DNA of 45,205 nucleotides from Actinomycetota bacterium (GTDB taxonomy: Bacteria > Actinomycetota > CADDZG01 > JAHWKV01 > JAOPZY01), in NCBI GenBank assembly GCA_035765775.1, contig DASTWV010000049.1:1-45205 (forward strand), read 5' to 3'. Under the pieces are notes generated by a model. That model worked only from the letters and a program-made list of their open reading frames with translations, had not been told where the DNA came from and searched no databases. Shown here in pieces: positions 1 through 45,178 of this stretch (within the stretch, counting starts at the first letter, position 1; each line of letters starts with the position of its first letter). The translations under genes and the position numbers were made by a program.

Positions 1-258
1 CCGTCAAGGGCCTTCGGTCTGCTTCGCAGACGGCCCTCGGTTGGTCCGGGAGGGGAAAGGCAAAGGCGAAGCAAACCGCCGCTTGACAGCCCGACCCTCA
101 TAGGTGTCCCACTGCCCGGGACGAATGTCCCCGACCTCAGCCCGAGGGGCCGCATGTGCGGACCCGGAACGACGGCGTGGGTCCGGGTGCCCCTTGACCC
201 GGCAGATGTTCGTGTCAGAGCCCGGACCCGGACCGCCGCCCACATCATCACGGGGAGG
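1..258. repeat. Left copy of inverted repeat shared with window's right end
   Basis: Bases 1-134 are the reverse complement of 45045-45178 with a single mismatch (position 115). Similarity continues inward to about 258 (right copy to about 44961), interrupted by roughly 40 extra bases in this copy. The outer edge holds a hairpin: AGGGCC (7-12) pairs with GGCCCT (32-37), and GTCTGC (17-22) pairs with GCAGAC (26-31) around a TTC loop. No transposase lies beside it. It may be a dispersed noncoding repeat at which the assembly broke, or the terminal repeat of a larger element. Bases 259-389 hold no gene that I recognise. Confidence 0.9.
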
Positions 259-2341: not shown

Positions 2342-5200
2342 TCATTTCTCGCCGTGGATGGTGCCCTGCCGCTCGAACCAGAGCGCAACCTGGGCCCGGT
2401 TGCGGAATCCCAGCTTGGTCAGGATGTGCTGCACGTGGTTCTGTGCGGTGCGCTCCGAGAGCACGAGCCGGTCGGCGATCTCCCGGTTGGAGAGACCCTG
2501 CGCCACAAGCCCGGCTACCTCCCGCTCCCGGACGGTAAGCGGCCCGGGGGCCGAGCGCTCCACCGCATCGAGCACGTCCTGCATCCGCCCGGCAACCGCA
2601 TGCAGTCTCAGCGCCCGTGCGGCGTCGAGATGCTCAGCGGCGAGTGCCCGCGCCCCTTCCCGATCGCCCGGCGCGTCCCGGAGGAGCAGGGCCGCAGCCT
2701 CATCGCTGGCGCTCTCCAGCTCGTATCCCGCGGCACCGGCCTCCCGGCTGAGCTGGCGGGCCTGGCCGAGGAATGCCGCGGCGGCGTCACGCTGCCCCAG
2801 ATGCAGGGCGGCCTTCCCAAGCCAGAGTTCCACCGGACCCAGGTAGGTGGCCGCCCCCAGACCGCAGGCGACGTGATGGCCGCGGTAGGCCTGCAGCCAG
2901 TCCTGGAGTACCTGGACATCCTCGGGTCGGCCCAGCGCGATGGCCGTCTCGAGCCCCAGAGCGGCGCCCAACAACACGACATGGGGGGGCGGGCGCCAGT
3001 GCGCCACTGGCCCGAGGGAACGCCAGAGGTCGCCTGCCTCTCCGAGCCGTCCCTCACCCGCCAGGTCATGGGCCAGGGCGAGATCGGCGATGAAGGGCGG
3101 ACGTCCCCCCGGCGTGCTGCTCTCCAGCGCGGTCCGGGTTACGCCGTCCAGCCCGGCGTGCCGGGCAATGCCGGACAGGACCGCGGCGCGCCGGTTCGGA
3201 GGCTCCGGATGGTCGCCCCACGCCGCCAGGCCGATCGCCTCGTCGCTCAACCGGCGCGCCTCGGCCAGCCGGCCCTGCGCCTGCGCCAGCACCGCCCGGG
3301 TGTGAAGCACCTGGTACCGGGCGAGCGGGCTGCGCAGCGCATCGGCCAGCACCGCCGAGCGATCCAACTCGCCCGGGATCCGTCCCAATCGGCCTTGTTG
3401 GAACAGGACGTCCACCCGGCAGAGCCGACCCCGGAGCTCGACATCGGCCCGCCCGGCGGCCTCCCCCAGCCGGGTCAGGCGGTCGGCCACTTCCTCTCGC
3501 TCCGCCAGTTTCCCGGGGTGGGCGGCCACGACCTGCCGTGCCCGGAAGGCGGCCACCCGGGCAGCCAGATCACCCGACGCCTCGGCAACGCGCACCGCCT
3601 CGGCGCTGGCCTCCTCTGCCGCGTCATTGTCGGGGAGGAAGATGAAGGTCTCGGCGAAACGCGCCGACAGCCGGGCGCGGAGGGGAGTCGGATCGGGGCC
3701 GAGGCGGTCGAGCACCTCCCGGCACATCTGACGCGTGGCAAGGTCGAAGCCTGGTTGGCCGACCGGATCCAAGACCAGGGCCGCCTCGACCACCAGGTGC
3801 GGACGGGCTTGGTCCGGTGCCGACTCAAGGGCAGACATCCGGCAGCGATGGCAGTCGCCCAGCGCGCCGGCCAGGTTGTGCGCCCGGGCCGCGCCGAGGA
3901 GCAGCCTGCTGCGCGCCTGGGCGTCGATCTCGGCTCCTCCGACCGACGCGGCCTGCTCGTAGAGCCGGGCGGCGTGTTCGTACCCCAACTGCGCCATGGC
4001 CAGGTCGGCCGCACGCTCGAGCCAGGAGGCGGCGAGGCCGCGGGAGCCACCACTGGCCGACGCCGCCCGGTGCCGGGCAATCTCGAACAGGTGGGGGCCG
4101 GCCTCGCTGCCGTGGCGGGCTTCGAGCGCCTCGGCGGCGCCCCGGTGCAAGGCGTGCTGCACCGCGGGCGAAATCCCTTCCAGGACAGCGCCGTGGACCA
4201 GGGCATGGGCGAACCGGTGGCTGGCGGGCGGGAGGCCCGCCTGCAGGAGGCCTGCGGCGACGGCCGGTGCGAGCGCCTCCAGGCACGCGCCTTCTGCGAT
4301 GGCCAAGACGCCCGCCAGCACCGAGGAGTCGAACTCCCTCCCCAGCACGGCCGCCCCCTGCACCGCGGTCTGGGTAGCCTCAGGCAGGCGGGCAAGCCGG
4401 GGGCGTACGGCGGTGCCCAGGTGACCCCGCCCCCCGGCCCGTTGCTCGCCCAGGCTGATGGCCGCCTCCCGCACCGAAAAGGGATTGCCGCCGGTCAGCG
4501 CCGTGATCCCGGCGAATTCCGACTCGGTCACCTCGGTGCCGGTCAGCGACTCCAGCTCCCGGCGGACGCTGTCCGGCTCCAGGCCCACCAGCGGGAGGTC
4601 GTGGACCCGGCGTAGCCCGGCCAACCGCTCCACCAGGCCGCCGGGGGCCGGATCCCGGGTGTTGATCCAGACCAGACAGCGCGCGGCGGGCAGGCCCAGG
4701 GCCAGCTGCCGAAGCAGGAGAAGCGACGCCTCGTCGGCCCAGTGCATGTCCTCCAGGAAGATCGCCAGGCGCTCCTCGGCCGCCGTCGCCGCAAGCACCC
4801 GGCTCACCGCATCGAAGACCAGGAAGCGTTCCTCAGCGCCGGTCTCCACCCACTGGGCTTTGGCTCCCTCACCCCACAGCCGGCGAAGCGGCGCAGCCAC
4901 CGCCTGGTCGCCCGCGATGCTCAGGATGCGGGTCGAGGTCTGCAGGGCTCGGAAGACCTGCCTCCAGGGCCACAGCGGAGGGGTGGCCACGCTGTCGTCG
5001 GCCATCCCCCAGGCCACCGCGAACCCGCGCCCGGCAGCCCGCCCCGCCGCTTCCTCGGCCAGGCGGGTCTTGCCGATGCCCGCCTCCCCGCGGCACAGCA
5101 CCACCGCCGCCTCGCCGGCTTCGGCGCGTGCCAGGGCGGCATCCACCACCGCCAATTCACGCTGCCGTCCGACGAACTCGGTACGCCGCGGTGCCTGCAT
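2342..5200 (-). CDS. Giant LuxR-family regulator with N-terminal AAA ATPase (LAL type)
   Basis: This 952-aa regulator has the LAL (large ATP-binding LuxR) plan. An N-terminal ATPase carries Walker A GEAGIGKT (38-45) and a Walker B region [11 protein letters not shown] (about 146-156). A long helical TPR-like middle follows, and a C-terminal LuxR helix-turn-helix (about 890-945) contains [20 protein letters not shown] and [17 protein letters not shown]. Such proteins activate secondary-metabolite or sugar genes in response to ligands bound by the ATPase/TPR part. The start ATG at 5200 begins just before the conserved EFVGRQREL; the ribosome-binding site is weak. It lies 52 bp downstream of the glycosyltransferase and 92 bp upstream of the O-methyltransferase, so it may regulate its own operon. 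Confidence 0.9.
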
Positions 5201-5252
5201 GTGCCAATTGAAGCACCGCTCGCGGTGGGCGATGATCCAGCCTCCCCCGGTG

Positions 5253-6461
5253 TCAGGCGCGCCGGGCCCCGGCCAGTTCGGGGAGCCGCTCGGCCACCTC
5301 GGCGGCTGCCGGCATGGCGGCGATCTCGGCGGCGATCTCCCGGGTGCGGCGGTGCAGGTCACCACCGGCCAGCATCGAGTCGACCGCGGCCGACACCATC
5401 TGGGCAGTGAGGTCGGCCGGAACCGTCAAGGGGGCGGCCATCGGGCCGATCTGGGTGGTCGTGGTGGCGCAGACCACCGCCGCCCCCGCCCGGGCGCAGG
5501 CGGCGGCCACCAGGGGCTGGTCGGTTCCCAGGGGCAGCAGGCAGAGCGGGACCCCAGCCCCCAGCGCACCGTAGACCGTGCCCCGGCCGGCATGGCACAC
5601 GACCCCGGATGCCTTCGCCAGCACGGCGTCCTGCGGGATGTACGCCGCGGTCCTGACATTGGCGGGCAGCGGACGCAGCGTTTCCACGGCAGCGGGGTCG
5701 CCGGTCGTCATCACCACATCGATGTCCCGGCCCTCCAGGGCCTCGGCAATGGTGCGGAATACCGGCAGCAAGCGGTTGACCACCGTCCCGAGCGTCACGT
5801 AGACCAACGGCCTCCCCCCGAGGTCGTCCAGCCAACCGGGTGCCATCACATCGCTCCGGCGGGCGTATACCTCCGGCCGGATGGCCCAGCGCCGGGTGTC
5901 GGCCGCCAGGTATGGGTTGGCCAGCGCCGGGGGCGTCCGGTCCAGGTAGGCATCGCCGGTCAGGCTGGTGAGCTCGGGATCGGGAGCGAGGCCCCGTTCC
6001 GACCGCAGGCTGGCGAGCACATCGCCCAGCAGCAACTGCGCCACCGGCGCCGGCATCGTGTCGGTGACCCCGAACACGGCCACCGGAAGGTTGAGCTCCT
6101 CGGCCGCCGCCCAGGCCCCGAAGTCGAGGTTGTCCCGCACCATCAGGTCCGGGGTCCAGGATCCGGCAAGCTCCACCAGCCCGGCTGCCTGCGGGCCGGA
6201 CGTGAAGCCGGTCAGCCAGCGCAGCTGCTCGATGGAGGATTGCCGGGCGAAGTCCTCAGTGGGGGGAGTCCCTGCCCAGTCTGCTCCGGTAGCCACCGGG
6301 GTGAGCCCCACGGCCTGCACGGCACCGCCGAAGGAGGCAGCGGTGGCCACGCGCACCTCATGACCGCTGTCCTGCAGTGCCCGGGCCAGTGGGGCAACTG
6401 CGCTCAGATGGCCGGCACCGGGGATCAGGGTGAACAGCACTCGCACGGAACGTGACTGCAT
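5253..6461 (-). CDS. MGT/EryCIII-like UDP-glycosyltransferase (GT1)
   Basis: This 402-aa protein is a GT-B fold family 1 glycosyltransferase, like those that glycosylate macrolides, anthracyclines or flavonoids. The N-terminus [20 protein letters not shown] carries the expected His that activates the acceptor. The C-terminal nucleotide-sugar site shows [18 protein letters not shown] and LPLGTDQP, matching the family's HxGxGT and final DQ pair. The start at 6461 has an AAGGAGG six bases upstream. It is the first gene of a leftward set with a LuxR regulator, an O-methyltransferase and an ABM-like protein, and it diverges from a TetR gene across a palindromic operator candidate (6492-6516). Donor sugar and acceptor are unknown; no sugar-biosynthesis genes are present. 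Confidence 0.88.
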
Positions 6462-6540: not shown

Positions 6541-7182
6541 GTGGACGACGTCAAGGCCCCGATGACCTACCGGCAACGCCAGGCCGAGGAGACCAAGGCG
6601 CGGATTGCCACCGCGGCCCGGGACCTCTTCGCACGCCAGGGGTACGCCCAAACCAGCATGGAGGCGATTGCCGCCGAGGTGGGGGTGGCAGTGCGGACGG
6701 TCTATGCCGCCTTCGGGACCAAGAAAGCGATCCTCGGCGCCATCTGCGAGCAGTGGCTGGAGCGTGCCCAGACACTGGTGCTGGTCCAGGAGGCGATGGC
6801 CGCGCCCGGAGCCCGCCGCCGCCTGGCTCTGCTTGCCCGGGCCGTCCGCCTCCAGTGGGAAGAGGGGGGCGACATCCTGACCATGTTGGAGGTCGCGGCT
6901 GCCGGTGACGCCGAGATCCGGGCGATGGTTGACGGTTGGGCCGGGGCGCGGGCGGCAGCCATGGGGCGGGTGCTGGCCGGCGTGGAGAGTGAGCTCGTGG
7001 CGTCGCTCGGGTTGGCCGGTGCCACCGCCGTCGTGCGGGCGATGACGGCGCCCCAGCTGTACCAATCGCTGGTCGGCGACTCGGGCTGGCTTCCAGATCA
7101 GTTCGAGGAATGGCTGGGCGAGGCGCTCGCCTCGCTGCTGCTGCCGCCCAAGGCCCGTTCCCGGGCCCGCACCCAGGGATGA
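6541..7182 (+). CDS. TetR/AcrR-family repressor
   Basis: This protein is about 213 aa with a classical TetR helix-turn-helix: TKARIATAARDLFARQGYA, then TSMEAIAAEVGVAVRTVYAAF, and KKAILGAI. The C-terminal ligand domain is helical and matches the TetR type ending in QLYQSLVGDSGWLPDQFEEWL. The start is uncertain: GTG 6541 and ATG 6562 are both plausible and neither has a strong ribosome-binding site; GTG 6517 would start right at the operator. The stop overlaps the start of the downstream LuxR regulator (ATGA), implying translational coupling. It probably represses the divergent glycosyltransferase operon and itself through the dyad at 6492-6516. Confidence 0.88.
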   Translation: MDDVKAPMTYRQRQAEETKARIATAARDLFARQGYAQTSMEAIAAEVGVAVRTVYAAFGTKKAILGAICEQWLERAQTLVLVQEAMAAPGARRRLALLARAVRLQWEEGGDILTMLEVAAAGDAEIRAMVDGWAGARAAAMGRVLAGVESELVASLGLAGATAVVRAMTAPQLYQSLVGDSGWLPDQFEEWLGEALASLLLPPKARSRARTQG

Positions 7183-10004
7183 CCATGGGACCGTTGCTTG
7201 AGCGTGAGGACGAGCTGGCGGCGGTCGATCGGCTCCTCGAGGGGGGCGGGGTGCTCATCATCGAAGGCCGGGCCGGCATCGGCAAGACGGCCTTGCTGGG
7301 CACTGCCTGCCGGCTGGGCGCGGAGCGGGGCCGCGGGGTCCTGCGTGGCCGAGGCTCGGAGCTGGAGGCAGGCTTCCCGTTCGGCGTGGTCCGCCAGCTG
7401 TTCGAGCGGGAGCTGATGGGCTTCGGGTCGGGCGAGCGTGCCGACCTCCTTGCCGGCCCGGCCGGGGCCGTTCGTGCCCTGCTGCTGGGGGAGTTCGCGC
7501 AGACCTCGGCGCCGGACACCTCGTTTGCCGTGTTGCACGGCCTGTACTGGCTCACCGCCAACCTTGCGGACCGCCGGCCCCTGCTGATCGCCATCGATGA
7601 CGCACAGTGGGCGGACGAGGCTTCGTTGCGATGGCTGGCCCACCTCAGCCCGAGGCTCGAGGGCCTCCCGGTGGCGCTGCTGATCGCCCTGCGCCCGACG
7701 GAGCCTGCCTCCGAGACTGTCTCGCTGGCGGCCCTGCGAGAGGCAACGCCCACGGTCGTGCAGCCTGGGTTGCTGAGCGAGGCTGCGGTCGGGGACCTTG
7801 TCCGTGAGGTCCTGGGCCCCGGCGCCCGGCCTGAACTGACCGCCGCCGTGTGGGAAGCCAGCGGCGGGAATCCCCTGTACGTGAATGAGGTCCTGCGGGC
7901 GGCGGGCCACGACGGCCGGCCGCTGGCCGAGCTGGACCCCGCCGAGCTGCTGGCCCACGGGCACGAGGGAGTGGGCCGGAGGGTGGTGACCCGGATCCGG
8001 GGGCTGGATCCGAACGCGCTGAGCCTGGCGCAGGCGCTCGCGGTGCTCGGGGACGGCGCCGACCTGCGCCACGCCGCCGCGATCGCCGGCGTGCCCATGG
8101 CGCACGCGCTCTTCCTCGCCGCGGGGCTGGTGCGCATCGAGGTGCTTGCGGTGGAGGACCCTGCCCGCTTCATCCATCCGGTCGTGCGCGATGCGATCGA
8201 GGGATCACTGGGCAGCGATCAACGCGACGCCGCCCACCGGGCGGCTGCCCGGGTGCTGCACGACGAGGGCAAGCCAGCCGGACAGGTCGCCGCCCATCTC
8301 CTCGGAGTGCGCCCGGCGGGGGATCGATGGGTCCTTGACCGGTTGCGCGAGGGGGCTACGGCAGCGATGCAGAGCGGTGCGCCGGCGGCCGCCGCCGCCT
8401 TGCTGCAGCGGGCGCTGTCCGAGCCGGTCCCGGCGGCGGAGCGCGTGGCGGTCCTGCGGGAAGCGGCGCAGTCCGAAGCAGCTGCCGGGAGTGAGGCGGC
8501 CTGCGGTCACCTGGAAGCAGCGTTGCTGGGAGCCCGCGATTCCCGGGAGCGTGCCGAGATCGCGATCGAGGCCGCTGCAACCTATGCCTCGCTGTTCCGC
8601 TGGGTGGACGCCGTGGACGTCATCGAGCGCGCCCTCCAGGAGTTGGGCGACCGCGACGAGGGGCTCGCGGCCCGCCTGGAGGGCGAGTTGGTCGTGTGCG
8701 GGTTGCACGATGCGCGTCGTGCACGACATGTTGTGCCGATCCTGCACCGCCTCTCCTCCCGCACGAATGCGGGTGGGAGGGCGGAGGCGGTAGCGGTGGC
8801 GCGCGGCATGGCGGCGCTGCTGGCGGGGCAGCCGGTGGACGACGCAGTGGCCCCGCTGGAGCAGGCTCTCGCGCATGCGGAGGCCCGGGCAGAGAGCTGG
8901 GACACACGGGCAGCATTGCTGTGGAGCCTGGTGACCGCCGAGGCGTTCGACCGGGTAGACGCCGCCCTGGGGCCTATGATCGCCGAGGTCCACCGATCGG
9001 GCAGCGCCCGGGGGCTCGTCGCGGTCTACAGCACGCTGGGCCTGCTGCGGCTGCGGCTGGGCGCGCTGCCCGAGGCCGATTCGGCGGCCCGGGTCGCGCT
9101 GCGCGTCCTGCAGGAGGGCGACTTCGCTCCCGGGCTCGCCTTCGCGGTCACCGTGCTGGCCGACGTGGCAGTCGAGGCCGGCCAACTCGACGAAGCAGAG
9201 GCCTTGATCGACCTCCTGCCCCCGGGGGGCTGGCCGGCAGGAGTCGGGACCGTGCTCATTCCCGCCGCACGCGGGCGGCTGCGGCTGGCCCAGGGACGGC
9301 CGGGCGACGCCCTCGCCGACTTCCGGCGGTGCGCCGACATGTTCAGCCCGCAGGTGTGGGGCGCAGATCTGCGCGATGTGGGCTACGTGCACGCCCGCTC
9401 GGGTGCCGCCCAGGCTCTGCTGGGCCTCGGTGAGCGCGACGCCGCCCGCGAGATTGCCGCCGCCGAGTTGGCTGACATCCGGCGCTTCGGCGCCCGGCGG
9501 GCGCTCGGCGTGGCGTCACGCGTGGCTGGCCTGGCGGAGGGAGGCGAGCGCGGGCTCGAACTGTTGCATGAATCGGTTGCCAGCTTGAGAGCGTCGCCGG
9601 CGATCCTGGAGCTTGCCCATTCCCTTGCCGCCCTGGGGGCCGCCCTACGGCGGTCGGGCCAGCGGGCGGCCGCCCGCGAACCGCTGGCGGAAGCGCTTGA
9701 CCTCGCCGTGCGCTGCGGCGGCCGCCGGCTGGCTGCTCGGGCCCGGGAGGAGCTCAGAGCCACAGGCGCCCGACCCCGGCATGCGTGGCGGCGCGGCCTC
9801 GAGGCGCTGAGCCCCGGTGAGCTCCGGGTCGTGCGCCTCGCCGCCGAAGGCCGCACCAACCGCGAGATCGCCTACGAGCTCTACGTGACCCTGAAGACGG
9901 TGGAGGGCCACCTGTCCCGGGCCTACACCAAGCTGGGGGTAGCAGGGAGGCCCCAGCTCTCGGGGGTGCTGCAGGGCGAAACAACCAGGGTGGAGACCCA
10001 ATAG
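7179..10004 (+). CDS. Giant LuxR-family regulator with N-terminal AAA ATPase (LAL type)
   Basis: This 941-aa regulator opens with LLEREDELAAVDRLL and Walker A GRAGIGKT (30-37). A Walker B-like segment LIAIDDAQWADEAS follows. The middle is a long Ala/Leu/Glu-rich helical TPR-type region. The C-terminal LuxR helix-turn-helix shows LSPGELRVVRLAAEGRTNRE and VEGHLSRAYTKLGVAGR. The start ATG overlaps the TetR stop codon by ATGA, so the two are co-translated and likely act as a repressor-activator pair. The opposite-facing glycosyltransferase operon has its own LAL regulator, so this short region encodes two. The activating ligand is unknown. Confidence 0.9.
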   Translation: MTMGPLLEREDELAAVDRLLEGGGVLIIEGRAGIGKTALLGTACRLGAERGRGVLRGRGSELEAGFPFGVVRQLFERELMGFGSGERADLLAGPAGAVRALLLGEFAQTSAPDTSFAVLHGLYWLTANLADRRPLLIAIDDAQWADEASLRWLAHLSPRLEGLPVALLIALRPTEPASETVSLAALREATPTVVQPGLLSEAAVGDLVREVLGPGARPELTAAVWEASGGNPLYVNEVLRAAGHDGRPLAELDPAELLAHGHEGVGRRVVTRIRGLDPNALSLAQALAVLGDGADLRHAAAIAGVPMAHALFLAAGLVRIEVLAVEDPARFIHPVVRDAIEGSLGSDQRDAAHRAAARVLHDEGKPAGQVAAHLLGVRPAGDRWVLDRLREGATAAMQSGAPAAAAALLQRALSEPVPAAERVAVLREAAQSEAAAGSEAACGHLEAALLGARDSRERAEIAIEAAATYASLFRWVDAVDVIERALQELGDRDEGLAARLEGELVVCGLHDARRARHVVPILHRLSSRTNAGGRAEAVAVARGMAALLAGQPVDDAVAPLEQALAHAEARAESWDTRAALLWSLVTAEAFDRVDAALGPMIAEVHRSGSARGLVAVYSTLGLLRLRLGALPEADSAARVALRVLQEGDFAPGLAFAVTVLADVAVEAGQLDEAEALIDLLPPGGWPAGVGTVLIPAARGRLRLAQGRPGDALADFRRCADMFSPQVWGADLRDVGYVHARSGAAQALLGLGERDAAREIAAAELADIRRFGARRALGVASRVAGLAEGGERGLELLHESVASLRASPAILELAHSLAALGAALRRSGQRAAAREPLAEALDLAVRCGGRRLAARAREELRATGARPRHAWRRGLEALSPGELRVVRLAAEGRTNREIAYELYVTLKTVEGHLSRAYTKLGVAGRPQLSGVLQGETTRVETQ

Positions 10005-14080: not shown

Positions 14081-14449
14081 ATGCATGCTGATGCAGCATC
14101 CATCCCACTAGAGGTGCGGCAGGGCGGGATCGAGACGCACGGCGCCGACTGGGGCGGGATCACGGTGCGGGTGGTCACTTTGCCGGCGGGGGTGGACTTC
14201 ACGCCCCTGCTTGCCGGCCTGCCGGACGACCTCTGCCACTGCCCGCACTGGGGATACGTCCAGCGCGGGTCCATGCACGTCCGCTACGCCGACGGCACCG
14301 AGGAGGTGACTGCGGCGGGGGAATGCTACTTCTGGCCCGGCGGCCACACCGGTTGGTCGGGGGGAGAAGGGGCGACCTTCCTGGAGTTCAGTCCCACCGA
14401 GGACATCGCGCCGGTCCTGGCACACCTGGCCGCCCAGATGGCTGGCTGA
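14081..14449 (+). CDS. Small single-domain cupin
   Basis: This 122-aa protein fits the cupin family. Motif 1 is HCPHWGYVQRGSMHVRY (53-69) with metal-ligand-like His53 and His56, and motif 2 is GECYFWPGGHT (80-90) with His89. The rest is beta-strand-like. Related conserved actinobacterial proteins have no assigned reaction; sensing or binding a small ligand is possible. A GAGGAAAGG lies upstream of the ATG. It diverges from the broken TPR gene, and the two start regions nearly overlap, so they probably share a promoter region. The long repeat array begins 30 bp after its stop. Confidence 0.8.
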   Translation: MHADAASIPLEVRQGGIETHGADWGGITVRVVTLPAGVDFTPLLAGLPDDLCHCPHWGYVQRGSMHVRYADGTEEVTAAGECYFWPGGHTGWSGGEGATFLEFSPTEDIAPVLAHLAAQMAG

Positions 14450-14478
14450 GGGACGTCCCGGGCGCCCCGCCGGACCCG

Positions 14479-14965
14479 TGTACCACTCCGCCGGGTAGCG
14501 GCCGGGGCGGTCGGTGAGGTCAGGGCCGGCGCTGGCGGCCCGCGGCCCGTGGCCGGGGCGCCAGTTGCTTGTTGGCGGCGTGGTACAGCTGGTGGCTGTA
14601 CCACTCCGCCAGGTATCGGCCGACGGCCAGCGACGCCCGTGGCCGGCGTCCGGGGCGGCCGGTGAGGTCAGGGCCGGCGCTGGTGGCCCGCGGCCCGTGG
14701 CCGGGGCGCCAGTTGCTTGTTGGCGGCGTGGTACAGCTGGTGGATGTACCACTCCGCCAGGTATCGGCCGGGGCGGTCGGCGAGGCCCGCGGCCAGCGTC
14801 CAGGGGCGGTCGGTGAGGTCAGGGCCGGCGCCGGCGGCCCGTGGCCGGGGCGCCAGTTGCTTGTTGGCGGCGTGGTACAGCTGGTGGATGTACCACTCCG
14901 CCATGTATCGGCCGGGGCGGTCGGCGAGGCCCGCGGCCGGCGGCGCCAGTTGCTTGTTGGCGGCG
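14479..14965. repeat. Array of about four imperfect 77-148 bp repeats with junction hairpins
   Basis: Units begin TGTACCACTCCGCC at 14479, 14597, 14745 and 14889. Each ends with the core gccagttgcttgttggcggc (starting at 14560, 14708, 14852 and 14945). Unit lengths are about 118, 148, 144 and 77 bp, so the array is not in a common reading frame and is unlikely to be coding. Each of the three junctions forms a hairpin (14580-14604, 14728-14752, 14872-14896) with GTGGTACA paired to TGTACCAC over a 7-9 base loop. The stretch 14966-15015 after it shows nothing recognisable. Confidence 0.9.
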
Positions 14966-15015
14966 CCCCGCACTCCCCGTTTGGCCTGACCGCCACGGTG
15001 GACGCCGGGCGCCGC

Positions 15016-15405
15016 TTACGAGCGGTCGAGGTCGGTGCGGAAGCGCAGCGACGAAACCACGCGGCCCCCTAGGGCCTCCACGCGCTCGCGCAGGCGCCGG
15101 TCCGAGGTTACGACCCGGAGGGTGCCCGGCTCGGCATCCTCCTCCACGATCCATACGATCTCGTGATCGGCCGCGTCGCGCCCCCGCCAGCGGGCGACCG
15201 CCACCGTGACCCCGTCGTGCAGTCCCGGTTCCAGCCCGGCCACTGGCCTGTCCAGCACGAGGGTCACCGAACTCCCCGTGACTGCCGCCCAGGCGGTGAC
15301 GTCATCAGCCAGCCGCCTCGCTGCGCGGTCCCGGTCGTGCCACCAGCCGTCGGGCCGCGAGCCGATGACATTGGACGCATCCACGATCCACCGCACGGGC
15401 GCCAT
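15016..15405 (-). CDS. NYN/YacP-family (PIN-like) ribonuclease
   Basis: This 129-aa protein matches the NYN domain of the YacP group. It opens WIVDASNVIGSRPDGWW with the conserved catalytic Asp9 and Asn12, continues DRDRAARRLADDVTAW, has a central ADHEIVWIVEEDAE and closes with VTSDRRLRERVEALGG, whose Asp is also a family acidic residue. Relatives cleave single-stranded or structured RNA in ribosome-linked decay. The start lies three bases after the TGA of the upstream SGNH gene, so the two are co-transcribed and probably co-translated. The family is clear; the RNA target is unknown. Confidence 0.85.
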   Translation of the reverse strand: MAPVRWIVDASNVIGSRPDGWWHDRDRAARRLADDVTAWAAVTGSSVTLVLDRPVAGLEPGLHDGVTVAVARWRGRDAADHEIVWIVEEDAEPGTLRVVTSDRRLRERVEALGGRVVSSLRFRTDLDRS

Positions 15406-44960: not shown

Positions 44961-45178
44961 AAGCTCCCCGCGATGATGTGGGCGGCGGTCCGGATCCGGG
45001 CTCTGACGCGTTCGGGGTCCACCCATGCGGCCCCTCGGCCGAACTCGGGGACATTCGTCCCGGTCAGTGGGACACCTATGAGGGTCGGGCTGTCAAGCGG
45101 CGGTTTGCTTCGCCTTTGCCTTTCCCCTCCCGGACCAACCGAGGGCCGTCTGCGAAGCAGACCGAAGGCCCTTGACGG
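44961..45178. repeat. Right copy of inverted repeat shared with window's left end
   Basis: This copy is the reverse complement of the left-end repeat. Bases 45045-45178 match 134-1 with one mismatch; inward to about 44961 the similarity continues, but this copy lacks about 40 bases present in the left copy. A hairpin made of AGGGCC/GGCCCT and GTCTGC/GCAGAC arms is present near its outer edge, as on the left. The last 27 bases of the window (45179-45205) have no counterpart at the left end. A short palindrome TTTTGG-g-CCAAAA (44949-44961) lies at its inner border. Bases 44878-44948 hold the HPPD promoter region and no gene. Confidence 0.9.

What the first reader, a model, noticed from the sequence alone, without database searches (positions are those of the whole stretch)
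14479..14965. Unexplained array of long repeats with hairpins at each junction
Four units share a 20-base core and a common start, with unit lengths 118, 148, 144 and 77 bp. They are out of phase with each other in every frame, so not coding. Each of three junctions folds into GTGGTACA/TGTACCAC hairpins with a 7-9 base loop; in the first junction a base change extends the stem to nine pairs with both sides matched, as expected if structure is conserved. It could be a structured RNA array, a protein-binding array or a recombination locus.
Basis: seen in the sequence. Interest (0 to 1): 0.62.

Follow-up and report, generated by a model that had tools for sequence, protein, structure and literature searches.

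The report
Tandem array of dispersed palindromic repeat
A 490-base array between two genes turns out to be a local multiplication of a short mirror-image DNA repeat that is scattered through this one bacterial genome, much like the REP repeats of other bacteria, rather than a special RNA or recombination device.

Summary
It is not a stand-alone locus. Its hairpin is one of 36 copies of a sharply bounded imperfect palindrome of about 49 bp, at about 30 loci of the same genome. The copies sit between genes and are over-represented between convergent genes (12 of 25 loci against 9 of 59 control gaps). None was found in 395 other genomes of the phylum. The window array is one copy multiplied in tandem together with its flank and cut off inside a palindrome at both ends; smaller tandem clusters exist at other loci. 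Published REP/REPIN repeats show this same arrangement (PMC3733652, PMC3116915; passages). The hoped-for covariation is absent: the arms vary independently. The RAYT transposase family and the GTAG/CGTC tags of the main REP superfamilies were tested and not found. Best reading: an orphan, lineage-specific REP-like repeat; its mobility is inferred, not shown. A possible tie to duplicated DUF222-HNH genes was noticed but did not generalise.

The parts
14479..14504 (+). Right half-palindrome that opens the array (no left half)
   Evidence: family D3; one-mismatch half-site
14568..14616 (+). Palindrome copy 1 (49-bp core)
   Evidence: (14560-14624, 68.0 bits)
14716..14764 (+). Palindrome copy 2 (49-bp core)
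   Evidence: (14708-14772, 71.4 bits)
14860..14908 (+). Palindrome copy 3 (49-bp core)
   Evidence: (14852-14916, 69.3 bits)
14942..14965 (+). Left half-palindrome that closes the array
   Evidence: family D2
14498..14942 (+). Tandem block of palindrome plus spacer; the spacers are repeated too
   Evidence: period 148, 3.0 copies, score 719
14081..14449 (+). Left neighbour, 122-aa ORF, cupin-like by eye, no Pfam match
15016..15405 (-). Right neighbour, NYN_YacP domain (PF05991, E 2.9e-7); convergent with the left neighbour

Best explanation
The hairpin is a short, precisely bounded, non-coding palindromic repeat of about 49 bp (ATA-GTTGGYGG-M-GTRGTACA-GCCAGGGGA-TGTAYYAC-K-CCRCCAAC-TAT) that spread through this genome as a REP-like element without a gene of its own and settled between genes, mostly at gene ends. 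Shown: the family, its edges, its intergenic and convergent bias, its absence from relatives, and tandem clusters that include flanking DNA. Inferred: that a transposase or recombinase (lost, not assembled, or not recognised) copied the element, and that the window array arose afterwards, when one copy and about 90 bp of flank were duplicated by slippage or unequal exchange. The half-palindromes at the two ends are then breakpoints.
For: blastn with the array alone: 41 matches across the own genome. Model: 36 places. Sharp 49-50 bp edges in 28 non-redundant copies. 33 of 36 places overlap no called ORF; 12 of 25 loci convergent against 9 of 59 control gaps, p = 0.0026. 56 flanking proteins share no functional theme. 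0 of 395 other phylum genomes. Other tandem clusters with their own flanks at C59, C28 and C21/C43. Published REP and REPIN clusters are described as tandem copies including flanking DNA (PMC3733652 and PMC3116915, passages read).
Against: No mobiliser identified: no Y1 transposase, no target-site duplication, no isolated pair of ends around a transposase seen. No same-genus genome is held, so no empty site was seen and mobility is not demonstrated. The copy number (36) is low for REPs, which PMC2817692 (abstract, search listing) calls usually >100 per genome. The gene caller is rough and the control gaps are few.
Confidence: 0.78

Rival explanations
1. The palindromes act as RNA hairpins at transcript ends (bidirectional terminators or mRNA 3' protection) and were amplified in tandem at this convergent junction.
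For: Excess between convergent genes. At 7 of 9 co-directional loci the copy lies nearer to the upstream gene's stop, and at 7 of 9 it has the same orientation (read; not significant). The inner 8-bp stem is well conserved.
Against: No covariation; outer arms often do not pair, and one of three copies tested folds no better than shuffles; no strand preference in folding energy (16 of 28); no T-run terminator in the array; not shared with relatives.
Confidence: 0.1
2. They are double-stranded binding sites for a dimeric protein (regulator or chromosome-organising protein), each half being read separately.
For: Half-sites vary in blocks independently of each other; the asymmetric centre is conserved.
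Against: Few copies in divergent promoter gaps (4 of 25); flanking genes have no common theme; 49 bp with sharp edges is long for an operator; tandem copies carry flanking DNA.
Confidence: 0.07
3. The palindrome is the substrate of DUF222-HNH proteins, whose multi-copy genes carry it downstream.
For: Three copies (C5, C24, C33) lie roughly 130-220 bp downstream of DUF222-HNH genes or gene ends; the C24/C33 duplicate stretch (301 bp, 92.7%) stops within 2-3 bases of the palindrome's edge.
Against: The three may descend from one event. The C57 relative has no copy in the stretch read and the two genes of a second clade (C32, C59) have none. In 38 downstream stretches from 11 relative genomes no repeat was shared within a genome; the inverted-repeat scan there was insensitive (9 of 28 known copies).
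Confidence: 0.05

Closest known systems
REP elements (GTAG and CGTC superfamilies), PMC3733652
   Same: Short intergenic palindromes, mostly between convergent or co-directional genes, with clusters of tandem copies that include flanking DNA; the CGTC type also lacks a dedicated transposase (abstract and passages read)
   Different: 49 bp instead of 20-40 bp, stem of up to 19 pairs, no GTAG or CGTC tag, no RAYT gene, only 36 copies
REPINs, PMC3116915
   Same: Long symmetrical hairpin as the dispersed unit; ordered clusters are tandem copies including flanks (passages read)
   Different: Loop of 9 bases instead of a longer spacer; REPIN hairpins show common compensatory changes, here there are none; no RAYT
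Mycobacterial interspersed repetitive units (recalled)
   Same: Interspersed intergenic repeats that form tandem arrays in a high-GC actinobacterium
   Different: Compared from memory only; no sequence comparison was made

Membership tests
REP, broad sense (repetitive extragenic palindrome) | Palindrome repeated many times between genes | tested here: met
   36 places, 33 overlapping no called ORF
REP, broad sense (repetitive extragenic palindrome) | Size 20-40 bp | tested here: not met
   Conserved block 49-50 bp; size range from PMC3733652 abstract
GTAG REP | Unpaired GTAG/GTRG tag at one end | tested here: not met
   GTRG or CGTC near 6 of 56 ends; background 187 of 528 stretches
GTAG REP | RAYT (Y1_Tnp, PF01797) gene in the genome | tested here: not met
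   0 matches in a 95.8% complete genome; 5 of 14 control genomes ring, E. coli among them
CGTC REP | Unpaired CGTC tag at one end | tested here: not met
   Same count as above
BIME | Neighbouring palindromes in alternating orientation | tested here: not met
   Tandem copies have the same orientation in every cluster
REPIN | Compensatory changes in the long hairpin | tested here: not met
   Fewer two-sided changes than in shuffles
CRISPR array | Near-identical short repeats with unique spacers | tested here: not met
   Unit lengths vary and the spacers are repeated as well
MITE | Target-site duplication | tested here: not met
   Best z 3.6 among 1352 combinations, 24 copies
MITE | Full-length relative with the same ends | tested here: inconclusive
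   Isolated half-sites looked at (8 fetched) are mostly within coding-like DNA or lone halves
Rfam RNA family | Match to a curated family | tested here: not met
   None in the array at E<=1 or in the window at gathering score
Intrinsic terminator | Stem-loop followed by a T-run | tested here: not met
   0 found in 14400-15060
Integron attC site | R and L boxes recombined by IntI | not tested

The most novel reading that the evidence does not exclude
Multi-copy DUF222-HNH ('13E12'-type) proteins of actinobacteria copy or cut a dispersed palindrome that lies downstream of their own genes, and would thus be a second kind of domesticated mobiliser beside RAYT, with REP-like elements as their substrate.
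Probability: 0.05. Interest if true: 0.75.

Novelty: new member of a known kind. Interest (0 to 1): 0.27.

Why it matters
It explains an odd array as ordinary genome biology and adds an orphan, untagged REP-like family without a RAYT in a little-sampled high-GC lineage. If its mobiliser were found (a lost RAYT, or another enzyme such as DUF222-HNH), that would bear on the open question of how REPs without RAYTs spread.

Tried and rejected
Coding origin: the minus strand of the array reads partly open, but stops and frame shifts interrupt it, and several dispersed copies carry stops in the equivalent frame by eye; rejected.

Structured RNA with covariation: rejected. An apparent excess of G.T over A.C wobbles on one strand, seen, shrank to 28 against 20 cells in the 28 non-redundant copies, and folding energy favours that strand in only 16 of 28.

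DUF222-HNH link: followed through; kept only as a low-probability reading. The inverted-repeat scan used on relatives found only 9 of 28 known copies and neither of the two DUF222-linked copies that I gave it, so it cannot exclude weak palindromes there.

Target-site duplication: none. Homology beyond the core: permissive BLAST scoring gave meaningless long alignments in this G+C-rich DNA and was replaced by a position-by-position count. Units that open at the hairpin loop (insertion of circles): the window array begins at the loop edge, but its right end stops short of it and the C28 duplication breaks outside the palindrome; dropped.

Rows dropped: of 31 distinct copies from the first extraction 29 were aligned, two near-duplicates of the C43/C21 clusters being left out. 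Counts on 28 copies leave out 8 of 36 tandem or duplicated copies; the duplication test leaves out 12. The gene-context test uses 25 of about 30 loci; four at contig ends and one overlapped by a doubtful ORF were left out. Of the 40 DUF222 stretches fetched from relatives two ran off the contig without a stop and were left out.

Full report
What is there. Window 14479-14965 holds a right half-palindrome, three full palindromes and a left half-palindrome, joined by spacers that are themselves repeated. TRF gives it the highest score in the window (719). The stem is longer than stated: about 14 pairs around a C/T mismatch, with a 9-base loop. The array lies between two convergent genes, a 122-aa ORF that looks cupin-like by eye (no Pfam match) and a NYN_YacP-domain gene. 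The array region has no terminator-like or promoter-like consensus and no Rfam match; the window has no tRNA.

It is a dispersed family. Searching the window's own genome (3.6 Mb, 62 contigs, 95.8% complete) with the array alone by blastn gave 41 matches on many contigs. A covariance model from 29 copies found 72 matches at E <= 0.001, that is 36 places, each seen on both strands. The source copies match by construction, so the independent evidence is the blastn result. Merging neighbours leaves about 30 loci. The conserved block is 49-50 bp with sharp edges (28 copies): ATA-GTTGG-YGG-M-GTRGTACA-GCCAGGGGA-TGTAYYAC-K-CCRCCAAC-TAT. Outside it, conservation is mostly near background. Three copies (C26, C32, C35) also share TCCGATTTCYACCAG about 21 bases downstream; this motif occurs exactly nowhere else in the genome.

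Where it lies. With a gene caller trained on these loci (rough), 33 of 36 places overlap no ORF, two overlap the doubtful ORF inside the window array, and one a doubtful ORF on C23. Of 25 loci with genes on both sides, 12 are convergent, 9 co-directional and 4 divergent; the 59 control gaps of at least 50 bp in the same loci are 9, 34 and 16 (Fisher p = 0.0026 for convergent). Gaps with a copy are longer (median 263 against 115 bp). The 56 flanking proteins share no common family: no Pfam family matched more than three of them.

Distribution. No match in 40 relatives; the 23 other held genomes of the class were already among these by their handles. No match in 395 other genomes of the phylum (with stricter filters; this draw includes relatives searched before). 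Only one same-family genome and no same-genus genome appear in these lists. An exact degenerate pattern gave one hit in the collection of 84,980 species, which lacks the outer stem and looks like chance, and none in viral contigs. blastn found nothing in plasmids or phages.

Structure. On 29 copies the stem has fewer two-sided changes and a lower covariation score than shuffled columns. On 28 copies, 392 of 532 pair cells are Watson-Crick, 28 G.T, 20 A.C and 92 other. The half-sites carry block variants GT or CC, and GNG or CAC, on either side; 10 of 28 copies have GT/GNG on both sides, and left and right blocks are not associated (p = 0.35 and 1.0). This fits halves that vary, or are exchanged, independently and does not fit a stem kept for its fold. 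Of three copies folded as DNA two do well (z -4.9 and -3.8) and one does not (z -0.07).

Tandem clusters. C59 has two copies 103 bp apart; C28 has two copies in a 134-bp duplication (93%); the starts of contigs C21 and C43 each hold at least two copies 92-103 bp apart and match each other in opposite orientation, so they may be the two sides of one longer array that the assembly could not cross. Each cluster repeats its own flanking DNA. PMC3733652 (abstract, section 6 and passages read; [quoted passage not shown] PMC3116915 (passages read) says that ordered REPIN clusters are tandem repeats including the flanking sequences. The window array is of this kind. Lone right halves occur at the array start and, by eye, at C21:129866.

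How it spreads is not shown. No Y1 transposase (PF01797) was found, although the same model rings in 5 of 14 control genomes including E. coli. No target-site duplication was found. GTAG or CGTC tags are not enriched (6 of 56 ends; background 187 of 528 stretches). So it behaves like a REP family but fails the defining tests of the two tagged superfamilies and of RAYT association.

The DUF222-HNH lead. Copies at C5, C24 and C33 lie downstream of DUF222-HNH genes or gene ends. Contigs C24 and C33 both break inside such a gene; their shared 301 bp run from the gene to within 2-3 bases of the palindrome's end. A fourth relative (C57) has no copy within the stretch read, and a transposase-like ORF (my reading, not scanned) sits just downstream of it. 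Two DUF222 genes of another clade (C32, C59) have none. In 38 downstream stretches from 11 relative genomes no within-genome repeat was found, with the sensitivity limits. One duplication that carried a resident palindrome along would explain all this, so I give the functional link 5%. For DUF222 I saw only passages of PMC10589994, which lists REP13E12/HNH endonuclease/DUF222 among repeats recovered in mycobacteria. Searches for a DUF222-palindrome link and for part of this repeat's letters found nothing relevant in the held library; that library is partial.

Verdict. It is an ordinary kind of thing: an orphan, lineage-specific REP-like family, of which one copy was amplified in tandem here.

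Noticed in passing
L068:2279-3778 (C5), L076:2139-3665 (C57), start of contig C24, end of contig C33: Multi-copy DUF222-HNH genes with near-identical C-terminal ends; contigs C24 and C33 break inside such a gene, and three copies have a palindrome downstream.
   Followed up: partly
contig starts G000:C21:1-250 and G000:C43:1-220 (L026, L021): Both contigs begin inside matching palindrome arrays in opposite orientation, so they may be neighbours across one long array.
   Followed up: no
window 1-171 and 45009-45178: The two ends of the window's contig carry a 171-bp inverted repeat, 95% identical, probably another repeat that broke the assembly.
   Followed up: no
G000:C26:61808, C32:75439, C35:73606: The motif TCCGATTTCYACCAG occurs exactly three times in the genome, each time about 21 bases beyond a palindrome.
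   Followed up: partly
flanks of C59:82459 (L011) and C50:84646 (L018): Both flanks contain GATCACAGAAATTTTCGCGAGGCGC, perhaps a second small repeat or a longer form of this one.
   Followed up: no
window 2342-5365 (-) and 7110-10004 (+): Two large AAA_16/LuxR-type regulators lie close together in the window.
   Followed up: no
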